Source: Calothrix sp. NIES-4105 | Lineage (GTDB): Bacteria; Cyanobacteriota; Cyanobacteriia; Cyanobacteriales; Nostocaceae | Assembly: GCF_002368415.1 (NCBI RefSeq) | Contig: NZ_AP018290.1 | Span: 4,725,614 to 4,789,613, forward strand | DNA length: 64,000 bases | Reading direction: 5' to 3' | In this document: positions 14,848-49,124 of the stretch, in pieces | Position numbering within the stretch: position 1 is the stretch's first letter | How the letters are laid out: each line of letters begins with the position of its first letter | The notes under the pieces: generated by a model | Database searches by the model: none | What the model saw: only the letters and a program-made list of their open reading frames with translations | Told to the model about the DNA's origin: nothing | Program-made: the position numbers and the translations under genes

Positions 14848-15156
14848 ATGATTACAACAACATACGCACCGGCATCATTGGATAAAATTAATACACTAGA
14901 CGGTTCAACATACGCGATACTGGAATTTGCACGCGCGCTCTTTGCTGATAAACAATACTTACCAAGAGCCGATTTCAACAAAATAGTGGAATCATTTGGT
15001 TGGAGTAAGGAGATAGTTCGCAGCTACATCAAATTGGGAAAGAAAAATCTTAACCATACATCATCATATCTACTCATCATGGATAGGTTCGTGTTCAGAG
15101 ATAATTTTATCAATAGCATCCCTGACTTTTTGGCGCCAGTTGGGGATGCTCATTAA
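14848..15156 (+). pseudogene. 5' fragment of a gene split by a TnpB-like insertion
   Basis: The first about 60 residues look like a real protein: LDGSTYAILEFARALFADK, then an HTH-like stretch LPRADFNKIVESFGWSKEIV and RSYIKLGKK. The sequence then changes character around 15035-15060, where it enters the inserted DNA, and it runs to a stop at 15156 antisense to another gene. The sequence starting at 17036 (AFIDVEISKLV…) reads like the direct continuation. The two halves match my memory of a single cyanobacterial protein family with this order, of unknown function. The ATG at 14848 has no obvious ribosome-binding site; an in-frame TTG lies at 14830. Confidence 0.6.
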
Positions 15157-15255
15157 TTTGTCTTTTACTCCAACCTTAAGAAGTATGGTTAATGGTTTCC
15201 GGTCTAGAGGTTCGTTACTGGTAAAACCCAACTTATTATTTTTTTGAAAAGGCAC
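15070..15255 (-). CDS. Small protein divergent to the TnpB-like gene
   Basis: A 61-residue protein starting at a GTG with a strong AGGAGGT site 8 bases upstream. The sequence NKLGFTSNEPLDRKPLTILL, then VKDKLMSIPNWRQKVRDAIDKII, looks like a genuine small folded protein with one extended part and one helix. I recall similar small cyanobacterial proteins but no described function. It is read divergently from the TnpB-like gene, 63 bp apart, both with strong ribosome-binding sites, and it seems to be carried by the same inserted segment. Its tail overlaps antisense to the 3' end of the 14848 fragment. A regulator or accessory of the nuclease is conceivable but unproven. Confidence 0.7.
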   Translation of the reverse strand: MPFQKNNKLGFTSNEPLDRKPLTILLKVGVKDKLMSIPNWRQKVRDAIDKIISEHEPIHDE

Positions 15256-15318
15256 TTGACTGACCTCCTGTGTTGATATATAAACATATACATGGATAAA
15301 ACAGGGAGGTGATACTCA

Positions 15319-16944
15319 TTGCCACAAGCTTACCAAACCTACGTAACTCAGATTCAAAACGGCTATCTGAGGGAACAAAGTGCTATTGACCTGTTAGAGA
15401 AATTATCTCCAGTTGCAGCATTGATGTCAAGAATGGCGTTAGAGGGTTTGCAATCTGGGATGAAGGAACATAAACTTAATACCCAAATTCAGCAGACTTT
15501 TGGTGTAAATAAACGTTACGCATCCGGTGTAATAACTTTCGTGGCAGGGGAATTAAAATCAGCATCAGAGTCTTATAAAAGGCATCTTGATGTAATAGGA
15601 GCTAAAATCAAGTCGATTAATGAAACAATTAATCACCTAAACAAGAGGCTGAACAAGCATCGCGAGTACGTCAAAGCACTTGAGAAATATAACTTAGCCA
15701 TTAAGTATGCTGAAAAAACAAAGACTGGGAAAGCTAAAAAAGTTCCAACTTTAAAAAAGAAACCAGAGTTTGATAATGCTTGTCCAATTAATGGAAAGGG
15801 GGATGGTAAGACCTATTTACAGTTAGCCAAGTTTCAATTACATCAAAAGAAACGGCAGCTAAAAATATATCTAGACCGTACTGCTGCATTAATAAAACAG
15901 GGTTTTCAAGTCAATTTGGGGAACCTGGGTAAAATTTCTTTTGTTGGAAGTACTTCTGAAACTAGCGGGAACAGTATATGCCAATTTGAACCGGGAATCA
16001 TTCCTGTGTTAAAGATTCGTGTACCTTATTTCCTAGAAAAAAGTTTCGGTGAGCATGTTCAATTACCATTGTACAAGTTCAATGATTATGGTTCTGACCA
16101 GATCAAAACTGCTTGGGCATTAAATCGAGCTTTGACCTACGTTTTCTCTAAAAATAAGAAAGGGAAATGGATAGTAGCAATTACTGGATTAGTTGATTTC
16201 TCCTGTAACAGTAATGATAGAAGTAATGGATGTATTGGTTTAGATGTAAATCCTGGTTCAATTGGATGGTGTGCAACAAATCAGCACGGTAATCCAATTG
16301 CATGTTCTAAAGTTAATTTAGATTTACATTCCTGTTCAACAAACCAAACTGAGTCTCGTTTATCTCTTGCAGTCACGGAAATAACACAACGAGCTTTGGT
16401 ATCGAACAAGCCAATTGTGATTGAGAAATTAGACTTTTCTGAGAAAAAGAAACAGTTTGGTAGTCACCGGAAATATAACCGGATGCTATCTGGTTTTGCC
16501 TATTCAAAGTTTTTTGAATTACTCAAGTCTCGATGCTTAAAACTAGGGATTAGAGTCATAGAAGTAAGTTCCCGATACTCAAGCCAAATTGGCATCGTTA
16601 AGTACATGCGTCGTTATGGCATGGGTTCTGACACGGCAGCTGCATTAGTTATCGCACGCCGAGGAATGGGAATTTATTATGAAAAAATGCCAGCGAGATA
16701 CGCTTTTCAGAGTTCAATTCAAGCTGAACCTCGTAAACACGTCTTTGCACACTGGCAGAAGTTCAATAAGCATTACAAGAAGACAGGTTCTCGTAATGCT
16801 TGGTTCGATATACCCAATCTAACAGGTTCTACTGGCGACACCTTGACGAACACCGTTCATACTGTCAAATTGGCAGTTAAAGGGATGAACAAAGCTTCGG
16901 TACAAGGAAGGAAGTTTAAGTCCCGTCAGGAAGTAAAGGTGTGA
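15319..16944 (+). CDS. TnpB-related RuvC-like nuclease (IS200/IS605-type accessory protein)
   Basis: A 541-residue protein. The N-terminal half is helical and Lys-rich, with a coiled coil at about 80-130. The C-terminal half is a split RuvC fold: RuvC-I GLDVNPGSIGW (Asp309), RuvC-II PIVIEKLDFS (Glu369), and RuvC-III YGMGSDTAAALVIARRG (Asp438). Between II and III it has SSRYSSQIGIVKYMRRYG and no Cys pairs, so the usual zinc ribbon is absent. TnpB proteins are RNA-guided endonucleases that help IS200/IS605 elements persist. The start is TTG with GGGAGGTGAT just upstream. All three acidic residues are kept, so it could be active. No TnpA is adjacent. Confidence 0.85.
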   Translation: MPQAYQTYVTQIQNGYLREQSAIDLLEKLSPVAALMSRMALEGLQSGMKEHKLNTQIQQTFGVNKRYASGVITFVAGELKSASESYKRHLDVIGAKIKSINETINHLNKRLNKHREYVKALEKYNLAIKYAEKTKTGKAKKVPTLKKKPEFDNACPINGKGDGKTYLQLAKFQLHQKKRQLKIYLDRTAALIKQGFQVNLGNLGKISFVGSTSETSGNSICQFEPGIIPVLKIRVPYFLEKSFGEHVQLPLYKFNDYGSDQIKTAWALNRALTYVFSKNKKGKWIVAITGLVDFSCNSNDRSNGCIGLDVNPGSIGWCATNQHGNPIACSKVNLDLHSCSTNQTESRLSLAVTEITQRALVSNKPIVIEKLDFSEKKKQFGSHRKYNRMLSGFAYSKFFELLKSRCLKLGIRVIEVSSRYSSQIGIVKYMRRYGMGSDTAAALVIARRGMGIYYEKMPARYAFQSSIQAEPRKHVFAHWQKFNKHYKKTGSRNAWFDIPNLTGSTGDTLTNTVHTVKLAVKGMNKASVQGRKFKSRQEVKV

Positions 16945-17035
16945 ATCCTTTGGGGTAGGAAAAGTTGACCGCTACTTTTCTGGGTTGCTGTATTTATGCC
17001 TTGTGGATAGGTATGAGTAGCTTTTTCTGAGCGGA

Positions 17036-18055
17036 ATGGCATTTATCGATGTAGAAATAAGCAAGCTGGTAATGATTGAGCCACACACATTATTCAAAAT
17101 CACATCAAGCAAAAGGTTTGCTAGCGTAGTGTTTGGCATCAAAAACGCGGTTGGTCATATTACCCAACAATTCGTCCAAAATCTTATTGATGGCTTAAAG
17201 GCGTCACGGGCAAGCAAACCCGACAAACCAACAATTTGGCGTGGTGAAAAGGATACAAGTCGTACATGTGTCATTCCTCCGATTAAGGAAGATGACCAGT
17301 ACACAGGTACGTCAATTCAACGTGCTATGGATGATGAAAAAATCACAGCACAAAGATTTGTTCGAGAAGCGGCTGCATTTCGGGAAGCTATTAAATGTGG
17401 TGCCTTTAAGTTGGTAGGTGAATTGCCAGCACACCTCAAAGCAATATTAGGTTTAGAGTACTCGGCGCCAACACCAAGTAATGATGAGAGTGAGGCACAA
17501 GCAACAACAGTAGTAGAAGAAACGGCGCCTGATGTTGAACTAGTACAAACAGTGGTCGAGAAAACAGCACAAGAAGAATTAGTACAAATAGCAGAGTATG
17601 TGCAAGCTTATCCACTCAACTACTGCATTGTTAACGAAGTTTGTCCGGAAAACAAAATCAAAAGCGAACAACCATCAACTATTCCCGCAGCAGAATCATA
17701 TAGCGCGGAAGAAATTGCAGCACTGCTACGCGACTGCAATACTTGGTTAGAAATCACAGCAATTACTTCAAAGCTAGATCAGCCCACACGCATGGCATCT
17801 TGGTCAATGCTCAGTAAAGAAGAACAAAACCGCATTTACAAAATAAAATCAATTGCTACCGAAGCAAAAAATCAAAATATCACCACTGATGAACCTGCAT
17901 CAATCAAAGTCGGTGACATAGTAGTTTGGGACAACTGCTATCCTCACCTCAATAGTTGGCAGCCTTTCAAAGTGCAGCGAATCGAAGTTAATGGGTTTGT
18001 CAAACTCGAAAACGTCATCAATCTAATACCAATTGAAGAATTGAAATTAGCATGA
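17036..18055 (+). CDS. 3' part of the interrupted gene; unknown function with C-terminal SH3-like segment
   Basis: A 339-residue open frame. It opens mid-sequence as AFIDVEISKLVMIEPHTLFK, which fits a continuation of the fragment at 14848 rather than a true N-terminus; the ATG at 17036 has no ribosome-binding site. The middle has KPTIWRGEKDTSRTCVIPPI and a conserved-looking TSIQRAMDDEKITAQRFVREA. A Glu/Val/Thr-rich linker covers about 155-195. The C-terminus (IKVGDIVVWDNCYPHLNSWQ, then VQRIEVNGFVKLENV) looks like a small beta-barrel (SH3/KOW-like). Function unknown. If translated now it would lack its HTH-like start. Confidence 0.6.
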   Translation: MAFIDVEISKLVMIEPHTLFKITSSKRFASVVFGIKNAVGHITQQFVQNLIDGLKASRASKPDKPTIWRGEKDTSRTCVIPPIKEDDQYTGTSIQRAMDDEKITAQRFVREAAAFREAIKCGAFKLVGELPAHLKAILGLEYSAPTPSNDESEAQATTVVEETAPDVELVQTVVEKTAQEELVQIAEYVQAYPLNYCIVNEVCPENKIKSEQPSTIPAAESYSAEEIAALLRDCNTWLEITAITSKLDQPTRMASWSMLSKEEQNRIYKIKSIATEAKNQNITTDEPASIKVGDIVVWDNCYPHLNSWQPFKVQRIEVNGFVKLENVINLIPIEELKLA

Positions 18056-18181: not shown

Positions 18182-18532
18182 TTATTCTCTTGCTTCTCGA
18201 ATTGATAAATCGCCAAGGGATATTTCTTTTCTCAACTCCTTGAATTGCGTTTTTCTTTTATCTAATCCCTGTTTATTTACTTGTTTTAAAGCATTATTTG
18301 TATTAACATCCTTACCCGTCTTTTGAATATGCTCTTTAATCTGCTGCAACATTAAAGCTGACTTTTGATAAATGATTTCATCTGTGGAAAGGCTTGACTT
18401 TGTATCTGTTTCAATAACTTGCTGTAAAATAGCTTTTACTTCTGCTTGTAATGAACGACCATGTTGCTGTGCGCGAGCTTGCAAGCGCTCAATGATTCCT
18501 GAATCTAAATCTTCGACAACAAAGTTAACCAT
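18182..18532 (-). CDS. FitA-like ribbon-helix-helix antitoxin (orphan)
   Basis: A 116-residue protein. Its first 45 residues match the FitA/StbC-type ribbon-helix-helix pattern: a beta strand MVNFVVEDL, then IIERLQARAQQHGRSLQAEV and KAILQQVIE. Such proteins normally bind their own promoter and neutralise a PIN-domain (VapC) toxin encoded just downstream. Here the downstream side (below 18182) leads directly to the end of the 17036 gene, with no toxin. The C-terminal half is charged and longer than the usual toxin-binding tail of about 80-residue antitoxins. It is either a stand-alone regulator or a relic. Confidence 0.75.
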   Translation of the reverse strand: MVNFVVEDLDSGIIERLQARAQQHGRSLQAEVKAILQQVIETDTKSSLSTDEIIYQKSALMLQQIKEHIQKTGKDVNTNNALKQVNKQGLDKRKTQFKELRKEISLGDLSIREARE

Positions 18533-47621: not shown

Positions 47622-49124
47622 ATGGCAAGTAAGAAGTCAAGCATAACAAATGAATATACTGTAACTAGGGTAGTCTATTCCGTCGGCACTATTAATCCTG
47701 AATTAATTAAACTAGCTTCTGTATTAGGAGAACTTCGTTCTGAACTGTGGAACAAATACGGTTCTCTCAAAGCTTGGGGAATAAATAAAAATGAAATTAT
47801 CAAAAATATTAGAAACAGTGAAAATTTACGTAGTATCTATGGTGCTGAACGTTTTAACCTCTCCTCTGAAATGTGGGAGAGAACAGTTCAGGCAGTACTT
47901 GACGATATTCACGCTGTTCAAGAGGCAGCTAAAGTACAAATTATTCGTAAAATATACGAATATTTTAAACCGGAACGCACACTAGTTCAAAAAGGTAAGA
48001 AGCTAGTTTGGCAAGATATACCAGAAACATCTTTCCGGCAAGAATTAATCACAGCAATTAATTCTCGCTATTTGGTATGGTATCAGTACCCAATTCTTTG
48101 TCGTTGGGTAAGACAGTTTTATAAACGTGGGCACACTTGGGTTAATAACCAAATTGTAATTAATGCAACTGCTTCTTCAATGAAAGGTAAAATTACCAAA
48201 GATGGCAGAAGTGTTACAACTTACAAGATACCAACTTTTATGGATGGTAAAAAATGTCAGTGGGTAGAAATTAAAATTCATACTGGGAGAACTTGTCCGA
48301 AAGCTGGTAGACTTCGCCTCATTTTTAACGGCGAAAAATTTGAGTTACACTACCCACATACAACGAAAATAAATATTACGAAACAATCGGGTATAATTGG
48401 ACTTGATAAAGGCTTTACGGAAGGTTTTTATGGTAGTAATGGACGAGCTTATGTCGAGTCTTTAGGTGAAGTGATTAAAGCTGCTTCAAACAAAAGAACA
48501 AAGAAAAATAAAAAGCGCTCCGTAATATTTGCGATTTCTCAAAAAGTAGATGCTAAAAAATCATCTCAAATTTTATCAAATAACTTGGGACGCAAAAAAG
48601 CATCGAGAAAAGATAGTATTAAGCGCTTACATATTAAGCAGCTTATCCGAACCGATGTCAATCAAATATTTAATAATTTTGGAGAGGTTGTTGCAGAGGA
48701 CTTAAGCAAACATATCAAAAGTAAGAAAAAAGCAAAAGCCATTAATCGAAAGTTAAATGAATGGTCAAAGGGAGAATTACAAAAATCATTAGATGAAATA
48801 TCAGTTAGAAAGGGTGCAAAAGTTACACTTGTAAATCCGGCATATACTTCACAGGTTGACTCAAGCAACGGAACATTACTAGGAAAACGTGTTGGAGACC
48901 AATTTATTACTTACCAAGGTGTGATATTTCAGTCGGATATTAATGCAGCAATAAATATTAAAAACCGCGCCTTAGATTCAGAGATAACGCGGTTTATGAA
49001 AAAAGAACAGATCCATAGAATTTTACTTAATCGTACTACACAATTTCTTGATAAATTAGGCTACACGCTTGAAGCTGCTCTCTACATGGGGTGGTTAGAT
49101 AAAAAGCATAAACATCTACGATAA
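47622..49124 (+). CDS. TnpB-like RuvC nuclease lacking the zinc ribbon
   Basis: A 500-residue Lys-rich protein. The N-terminal 250 residues hold the helical and beta recognition part (GAERFNLSSEMWERTVQAVL; TGRTCPKAGRLRLIFNGEKF). RuvC motifs are SGIIGLDKGFTEGFYG (Asp262), FGEVVAEDLS (Glu359) and FQSDINAAINIK (Asp439). Between the last two it has VNPAYTSQVDSSNGTLLGKR and YQGVIF, without the four Cys of the usual TnpB zinc ribbon. This is a known TnpB variant group. All three acidic residues are present, so nuclease activity is plausible. It is a different lineage from the 15319 gene. The guide RNA would be expected downstream. Confidence 0.87.
   Translation: MASKKSSITNEYTVTRVVYSVGTINPELIKLASVLGELRSELWNKYGSLKAWGINKNEIIKNIRNSENLRSIYGAERFNLSSEMWERTVQAVLDDIHAVQEAAKVQIIRKIYEYFKPERTLVQKGKKLVWQDIPETSFRQELITAINSRYLVWYQYPILCRWVRQFYKRGHTWVNNQIVINATASSMKGKITKDGRSVTTYKIPTFMDGKKCQWVEIKIHTGRTCPKAGRLRLIFNGEKFELHYPHTTKINITKQSGIIGLDKGFTEGFYGSNGRAYVESLGEVIKAASNKRTKKNKKRSVIFAISQKVDAKKSSQILSNNLGRKKASRKDSIKRLHIKQLIRTDVNQIFNNFGEVVAEDLSKHIKSKKKAKAINRKLNEWSKGELQKSLDEISVRKGAKVTLVNPAYTSQVDSSNGTLLGKRVGDQFITYQGVIFQSDINAAINIKNRALDSEITRFMKKEQIHRILLNRTTQFLDKLGYTLEAALYMGWLDKKHKHLR

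What the first reader, a model, noticed from the sequence alone, without database searches (positions are those of the whole stretch)
15040..17030. TnpB-like gene plus divergent 61-residue protein as one insertion unit
The 541-residue RuvC protein lacks the zinc ribbon yet keeps Asp309, Glu369 and Asp438. It has no TnpA neighbour. Facing away from it, 63 bp apart, is a 61-residue gene whose GTG has a strong AGGAGGT site; the TnpB-like TTG start also has a strong GGGAGGTGAT site. The pair sits between the two halves of another gene, so both moved in together. A TnpB element with a dedicated small partner, both on non-ATG starts with strong ribosome sites, could be an undescribed module: a regulator, inhibitor or guide-RNA cofactor.
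Basis: partly seen in the sequence, partly recalled or inferred. Interest (0 to 1): 0.72.

Follow-up and report, generated by a model that had tools for sequence, protein, structure and literature searches.

The report
Small companion gene of cyanobacterial TnpBs
A 61-residue protein gene that faces away from an RNA-guided DNA-cutting gene (TnpB) in this cyanobacterium turns out to accompany many unrelated TnpB types in the same fixed layout, with a shared palindrome in the promoter between them, so it is most likely a portable off-switch for these DNA cutters.

Summary
Two relatives lack the insert, so 15039-17034 is one insertion into a host gene, with an IS607-like GG junction and no target duplication. 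It holds only the 61-aa gene (-), a 63-bp gap and the 541-aa TnpB (+), and ends in a conserved, covarying guide-RNA-like structure. Of 127 distinct small-gene loci, 107 have a divergent TnpB-like gene (79 intact); the three other placements gave 0, 1 and 0. Partners form six TnpB groups; 68 of 79 intact pairs have start codons 40-70 bp apart. A GTTAGTATACTAAC-like palindrome about 20 bp from the small start codon covers a tnpB -10-like box; its core recurs in all six groups. No TnpA was found beside the small gene where tested, although ends look IS607-type or IS200/IS605-type. Best explanation: a transposon-borne autorepressor of tnpB, working like CvkR/Arc_1 of Cas12k transposons but without detectable relation to Arc_1. 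DNA binding and a ribbon-helix-helix fold are inferred, not shown. I found no description in the papers searched.

The parts
15039..17034 (.). Whole inserted element (1,996 bp); crossover within the shared GGAA (GG core 15037-15038 / 17033-17034), no target duplication
   Evidence: Places without the insert, L191 and L192; the five related copies shown with their right flank (L051-L055) stop being alike after the same GAGCGG
15070..15255 (-). 61-aa companion protein gene (proposed repressor)
   Evidence: family alignment A1; coding constraint
15272..15285 (.). Palindrome GTTGATATATAAAC, proposed operator, 19 bp from the small start codon
   Evidence: 10 of 14 matches to the family palindrome at the family's usual offset
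15256..15284 (+). Possible tnpB promoter: TTGACT, 17 bp, TATAAA; the second hexamer lies in the palindrome
   Evidence: Read by eye; the consensus scanner reported no site here. In the family the -10-like TATACT is among the most conserved parts of the gap
15319..16944 (+). TnpB-like RuvC nuclease, 541 aa, IS607-type lineage, no zinc ribbon
16905..17034 (+). Conserved right end, predicted guide-RNA (omega/reRNA) scaffold: covarying stems, and a loop that can pair with the terminal GCGG
17035..17054 (+). Predicted guide (first host bases after the right end); occurs once in the genome at up to 3 mismatches
   Evidence: Position inferred
14848..15038 (+). 5' part of the interrupted host gene
   Evidence: start codon read by eye
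17035..18055 (+). 3' part of the interrupted host gene (family repeated in this genome)

Best explanation
A TnpA-less, IS607-type mobile element made of an RNA-guided nuclease gene (tnpB, with its guide RNA encoded at the right end) and a divergent gene for a small DNA-binding autorepressor. The small protein binds, probably as a dimer, the palindrome in the gap. The palindrome covers the tnpB -10 box and, being symmetric, can also block the small gene's own promoter, so tnpB is held at a low level. Shown: one insertion unit, recurrence with six TnpB groups, fixed geometry, the shared palindrome, conserved RNA structure at the right end, and no TnpA nearby where tested. Inferred: DNA binding, repression (rather than activation), dimerisation, nuclease activity and guide use.
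For: Unit: places without the insert, and four copies of one element of about 1,452 bp holding only small gene + tnpB in Nostocales cyanobacterium HT-58-2, 99.5-100% identical. Association: divergent TnpB in 107 of 127 distinct loci (79 intact, 28 degraded or cut, 19 without a hit, 1 at a contig end); other placements 0, 1, 0. Geometry: 68 of 79 intact pairs have starts 40-70 bp apart, range 31-165 (over-long ORFs were reset to the first start codon at least 30 bp away). Operator: the best palindrome match lies at offset 19-20 in 83 of 108 gaps; at least 12 of 14 matches in 34 of 108 against about 0.1 in shuffles. The core appears in all six TnpB groups. TnpBs without the small gene reach 10 of 14 in 4 of 36 and 12 of 14 in 0 of 36, over a longer search (150 bp), against 69 and 27 of 107. 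Six TnpB groups not joined by strong BLAST matches share one small family: this suits a DNA site better than a protein-protein contact. Analogy: CvkR and Arc_1/Arc_2, small DNA-binding proteins in reverse orientation upstream of cas12k (PMC9938897, section 7 and passages).
Against: No significant profile match to ribbon-helix-helix proteins (hhalign probability 2.5-4.3%) and no significant Pfam or PDB match. The AlphaFold monomer shows only two helices after a confident extended stretch. The window's own palindrome is a weak copy (10 of 14). Part of the motif's conservation may be the -10 box itself, and the consensus was chosen by eye from the same data. Some weaker family members sit beside non-TnpB genes. 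Most TnpBs in these genomes seem to lack the partner: by the coordinates shown, small genes lie beside 6 of 74, 10 of 45 and 2 of 53 guided_TnpB matches in G050, G111 and G000 (both lists are cut, so these are lower bounds).
Confidence: 0.74

Rival explanations
1. The small protein binds the TnpB protein or RNP and inhibits it, like an antitoxin or anti-CRISPR.
For: Constant linkage to a nuclease gene.
Against: Partners fall into six groups not joined by strong BLAST matches, while the small family and the palindrome stay alike; one inhibitor surface for all is unlikely.
Confidence: 0.08
2. The small protein is a transcriptional activator of tnpB, or switches between the two promoters.
For: The same palindrome and divergent layout.
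Against: The palindrome covers the -10-like box rather than lying upstream of the -35, which suits repression.
Confidence: 0.07
3. The small protein is a transposition helper that took TnpA's place, binding the element or recruiting a TnpA from elsewhere.
For: Where tested no TnpA was near it; in L052 and L053 a serine TnpA occupies that position.
Against: The conserved palindrome is between the genes, not at an end; the same family serves elements with IS607-type and, by eye, IS200/IS605-type ends, which move by different chemistry.
Confidence: 0.06
4. A guide-RNA cofactor, or no function (passenger).
For: A structured right-end RNA is predicted.
Against: Sequence constraint, fixed spacing and a conserved palindrome are unexpected for a passenger; six TnpB groups make a shared RNA cofactor unlikely (their RNA ends were not compared).
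Confidence: 0.05

Closest known systems
CvkR (MerR-type) repressor of type V-K CAST, Cas12k
   Different: MerR family, 139-185 aa, Tn7-like CAST; the A1 family does not match ORFs around the 30 Cas12k loci fetched (best E 2.6).
Arc_1 / Arc_2 small proteins of type V-K CAST
   Same: 53-72 aa, reverse orientation upstream of cas12k, predicted DNA-binding (PMC9938897, section 7).
   Different: No significant profile match to the Arc_1-like proteins found here (hhalign probability 3-4%); Arc_2 was not compared; the partner here is TnpB, not Cas12k.
IS607-family elements (TnpA + TnpB + reRNA)
   Same: TnpB lineage, GG junction without target duplication, structured RNA predicted up to the right end.
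   Different: No TnpA; a companion gene in its place; the left end shows no similarity above shuffles to the region upstream of tnpA in L052 and L053.
TnpB-only (IS1341-type) elements of IS200/IS605
   Same: Most partners (group A) are classical TnpBs; the multi-copy element examined has hairpin ends.
   Different: Carry the divergent small gene, annotated 'hypothetical protein' in the two named examples.

Membership tests
IS607-family element | Insertion at a GG core without target duplication (GG core recalled, not from a call) | tested here: met
   L191 and L192 lack the insert; shared GGAA
IS607-family element | Encodes a serine-recombinase TnpA | tested here: not met
   None in the element or the flanks held; kin L052 and L053 have it
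IS607-family element | TnpB with RuvC Asp-Glu-Asp | tested here: met
IS607-family element | Guide RNA encoded up to the right end | tested here: inconclusive
   98.5% of cells paired, 8 of 30 pairs with changes on both sides, 0 of 500 shuffles as high on these measures (on 'further pair types' 489 of 500 were as high); no expression data; no Rfam match above a cut-off
Ribbon-helix-helix (Arc/CopG) repressors | Significant profile match to the superfamily | tested here: not met
Ribbon-helix-helix (Arc/CopG) repressors | Strand-helix-helix, dimeric | tested here: inconclusive
   Two helices after an extended stretch of high pLDDT, monomer only
Ribbon-helix-helix (Arc/CopG) repressors | Binds a palindromic operator | not testable with these tools
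   A palindrome is present; binding is not shown
CvkR/Arc regulators of CAST | Homologous to CvkR or Arc_1 | tested here: not met
   (Arc_2 not tested)
CvkR/Arc regulators of CAST | Divergent, next to the start of an RNA-guided effector gene | tested here: met
Type II toxin-antitoxin pair | Small protein neutralises the partner protein | not testable with these tools
   Needs expression; the layout is divergent, not an operon

The most novel reading that the evidence does not exclude
The small gene with its palindrome is a portable control cassette that has passed repeatedly between unrelated RNA-guided nucleases and across two transposition systems, joining TnpB elements that have lost their own transposase. 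Copies sharing the palindrome in one genome would cross-regulate each other, and TnpB would fire only on entering a cell that lacks the repressor (zygotic induction).
Probability: 0.25. Interest if true: 0.82.

Novelty: new variant of a known kind. Interest (0 to 1): 0.63.

Why it matters
How TnpB-only elements keep a self-encoded DNA cutter in check, and why they persist without a transposase, is open (my view of the field). A companion gene shared by many TnpB types gives a direct handle: one small gene and one palindrome to test. It also suggests that the 'divergent small repressor next to an RNA-guided effector' design of Cas12k transposons is not peculiar to CAST but is found, with a different protein family, in TnpB elements, the kind of element from which such effectors are thought to derive (recalled).

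Tried and rejected
Rejected: 'dedicated partner of one TnpB type'. Rejected: CRISPR/CAST membership (no match to ORFs around the 30 Cas12k loci fetched). Led nowhere: Pfam, NCBIfam and PHROGs for the small protein; PDB by sequence and by fold (only non-significant matches); Rfam on the element (only sub-threshold matches); the first genome-contig scan with the single protein (134 stretches, none confirmed), replaced by a scan with the alignment; consensus promoter scan; search for a shared left end with IS607 kin (scores within shuffles); phage records (no match to one family member, L024).

Rows dropped and limits. Of 188 small-gene loci (80 + 108) two had no recoverable ORF; the rest were merged to 127 distinct loci by context, and transposed near-identical copies stay as separate loci. 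One search did not list all its matches; I examined 108 loci from it. The 108 gaps are an overlapping but different set that includes a few weak relatives (L097, L101). The weaker paralogs (L095-L101, L187, L188) are not in the 127. One search grouped 93 divergent neighbours: 88 fell into the six groups, 5 were single and not TnpB-like (two of them beside the weak relatives L187 and L188). The group consensus left out rows with fewer than 8 of 14 matches (101 of 107 kept), and 8 is what shuffles often reach. The TnpB query set was made from these neighbours and, so TnpB identity rests: all 10 representatives match guided_TnpB, 7 of 10 above its cut-off; groups D and E match only below cut-offs. 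The 'other placement' counts were artefacts of an over-extended ORF (L031) and were replaced. One search used 47 of the 50 small-gene matches that one search counts for those six genomes (three were not listed) and 87 of 89 Y1 matches (two left out lie within 150 bp of ones used). Searches scored only some candidates per genome (7, 16 and 4), so their misses are weak evidence. Of 11 places, nine gave right ends; L326 and L327 matched only in part and were left out.

Full report
What is there. The window lies in a 12.0-Mb cyanobacterial genome. Two ORFs face away from each other: 61 aa at 15070-15255 (-) and 541 aa at 15319-16944 (+), 63 bp apart. The larger is TnpB-like: TIGR01766 41.7 bits (cut-off 32), guided_TnpB 44.8 bits (cut-off 100, not reached). 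Asp309 and Glu369 are kept in 41 of 41 aligned rows and Asp438 in 31 of 41 (three rows are second readings of one gene); paired CxxC motifs are absent from all 41, so the lost zinc ribbon belongs to the subfamily.

One insertion. In relatives G115 and G138 the same place is without the insert (L191, L192); L191's host frame is open, L192's has a stop and a small insertion of its own. The joins share only GGAA, and there is no target duplication, which is the IS607 pattern (no terminal inverted repeats or target duplications: abstract start of PMC6188088 seen in the listing; the GG core is recalled). The element is thus 15039-17034. Kin L052 and L053 (71% and 68% identical TnpB) have a serine-recombinase TnpA directly before tnpB (Pfam for L052); the window copy has the small gene there instead.

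Right end. In one search the five related copies with their right flank (L051-L055) stop being alike after GAGCGG, where the window's junction is. Nine right ends from seven genomes, all reaching GAGCGG, were aligned. They share a fold with covariation: of 269 cells 98.5% pair, 8 of 30 pairs have changes on both sides, none of 500 shuffles reached these values (though 489 of 500 had as many pair types), and sliding the partners drops pairing to 45-57%. The loop of the main stem can pair with the terminal GCGG; only one of those four pairs varies, so this helix is merely consistent. This is what a TnpB guide RNA would look like, with the guide starting at 17035; that guide occurs once in the genome. 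No expression was tested.

The companion is general. A family search of 192 genomes found the small protein in 56. A pattern scan of a collection with one genome for each of 84,980 species kept 80 of 83 loci, all with cyanobacterial titles. One family member used as query (L024) matched two cyanobacterial plasmid records and no phage record. Of 127 distinct loci, 107 have a divergent TnpB-like gene (79 intact, 28 degraded or cut), 19 show none and 1 is at a contig end; TnpB in the three other placements was seen 0, 1 and 0 times. Start-to-start distance is 40-70 bp in 68 of 79 intact pairs. Partners fall into six groups of 60, 30, 6, 6, 3 and 2 loci; ten representatives all match guided_TnpB, seven above its cut-off. 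In group A (41 intact) the Asp, Glu and Asp that I take for catalytic are conserved at 100%, 100% and 95%, and 40 of 41 have two or more CxxC. Named examples: Nostoc sp. ATCC 53789 plasmid pNsp_c, TnpB WP_114083308.1 and WP_114083307.1 'hypothetical protein'; Calothrix brevissima NIES-22, BAY66659.1 and BAY66658.1.

Palindrome. In 83 of 108 gaps the best match to GTTAGTATACTAAC lies at the same offset (19-20) from the small start codon; 34 of 108 reach 12 of 14 against about 0.1 in shuffles. All six groups show its core. TnpBs without the partner rarely have it (4 of 36 reach 10 of 14, none 12, in a longer stretch) against 69 and 27 of 107. The consensus was picked from the data and overlaps a -10-like box, so part of the signal is promoter; the symmetry on both sides is what points to an operator.

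No TnpA. A serine TnpA was found in 0 of 127 small-gene loci (flanks mostly 1.5-2.5 kb, shorter at contig ends) and in 11 of 47 TnpB loci. For 47 small genes in six genomes the nearest Y1 TnpA is 3.7 kb away or further, and 9 have none on the contig. Four copies of one element in Nostocales cyanobacterium HT-58-2 hold only the pair, with hairpin ends as in IS200/IS605 (end type judged by eye). So the same companion seems to serve elements of two transposition types. A tree of 103 small proteins needs 19 changes of TnpB group (least possible 5, shuffled mean 41.0), so it follows the TnpB groups only loosely; 42 of 95 inner branches are unresolved.

Mechanism. A DNA-binding autorepressor explains why one small family and one palindrome go with nucleases that share little sequence. 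Fold: AlphaFold gives two helices (30-35, 40-55) after an extended stretch with mean pLDDT 89 for residues 21-30; a ribbon-helix-helix dimer would fit, but no profile or fold search supports it.

Known systems. In type V-K CAST, CvkR or small Arc-like proteins of 53-72 aa lie in reverse orientation upstream of cas12k (PMC9938897: start of abstract in the listing, passages and section 7 read). In the 30 Cas12k loci fetched (best-scoring ones) I saw, judging by sequence against that description, 17 MerR-like and 9 Arc_1-like neighbours and 4 with neither; the A1 family does not match there (best E 2.6). So this works like those regulators but is not shown to be one of them. IS607 TnpBs as reRNA-guided nucleases: PMC11061315 (passages). 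TnpB genes far outnumbering tnpA in haloarchaea: PMC3119063 (passages). Literature searches that showed no description of this companion: (titles and abstract starts in the listings, which are cut); subscription papers and most preprints are not held.

Against. The partner is a minority trait: by the coordinates shown it lies beside 6 of 74, 10 of 45 and 2 of 53 guided_TnpB matches in G050, G111 and G000 (lower bounds, since lists are cut, and the window's own TnpB is not among the rows shown). It was not found beside the window TnpB's full-length kin L051-L054. Weaker family members sit beside other genes, so the wider family is not TnpB-specific. The window's palindrome is a weak copy, and its left end matches no kin tested above shuffles.

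Noticed in passing
window 47691-48968 (+): A second TnpB-like gene lies in the window (G000:C1:4773304-4774581, 102.7 bits to guided_TnpB) with an equal-scoring match at G000:C1:5247217.
   Followed up: no
L057:1118-1336 and L058:1089-1319: Two other TnpBs (L057 with a serine TnpA upstream) have a different small ORF (MGKKVSQKLWQKANKD...) divergent 59-69 bp upstream: perhaps a second, unrelated companion family.
   Followed up: no
L185:1601-1888 (own genome C1:3060600): A 95-aa ORF divergent 222 bp from a TnpB looks CopG-like at its start by eye (no Pfam support), and its end resembles the companion's core (DKLKAVPNWQEQVRGLIEELI).
   Followed up: partly
L095-L101, L187, L188: Weaker relatives of the companion beside non-TnpB genes; L096 and L101 face MFTRSELExKT... 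proteins. A wider family of small proteins seems to exist.
   Followed up: partly
L321 and L325 (G018:C1:10490255 and 4655072): Right ends of the window-type element at places where one search showed no TnpB (it scored only 7 of 35 candidates in G018): possible solo ends or degraded copies.
   Followed up: no
window 14848-15038 and 17035-18055: The interrupted host gene belongs to a family with no Pfam match for the two pieces searched, 12 matches in this genome, and matches in 24 of 60 genomes searched, own included.
   Followed up: partly
window 18182-18532 (-): FitA-like ribbon-helix-helix antitoxin (PF22513, E 2e-10) shortly after the host gene; its toxin partner was not looked for.
   Followed up: no
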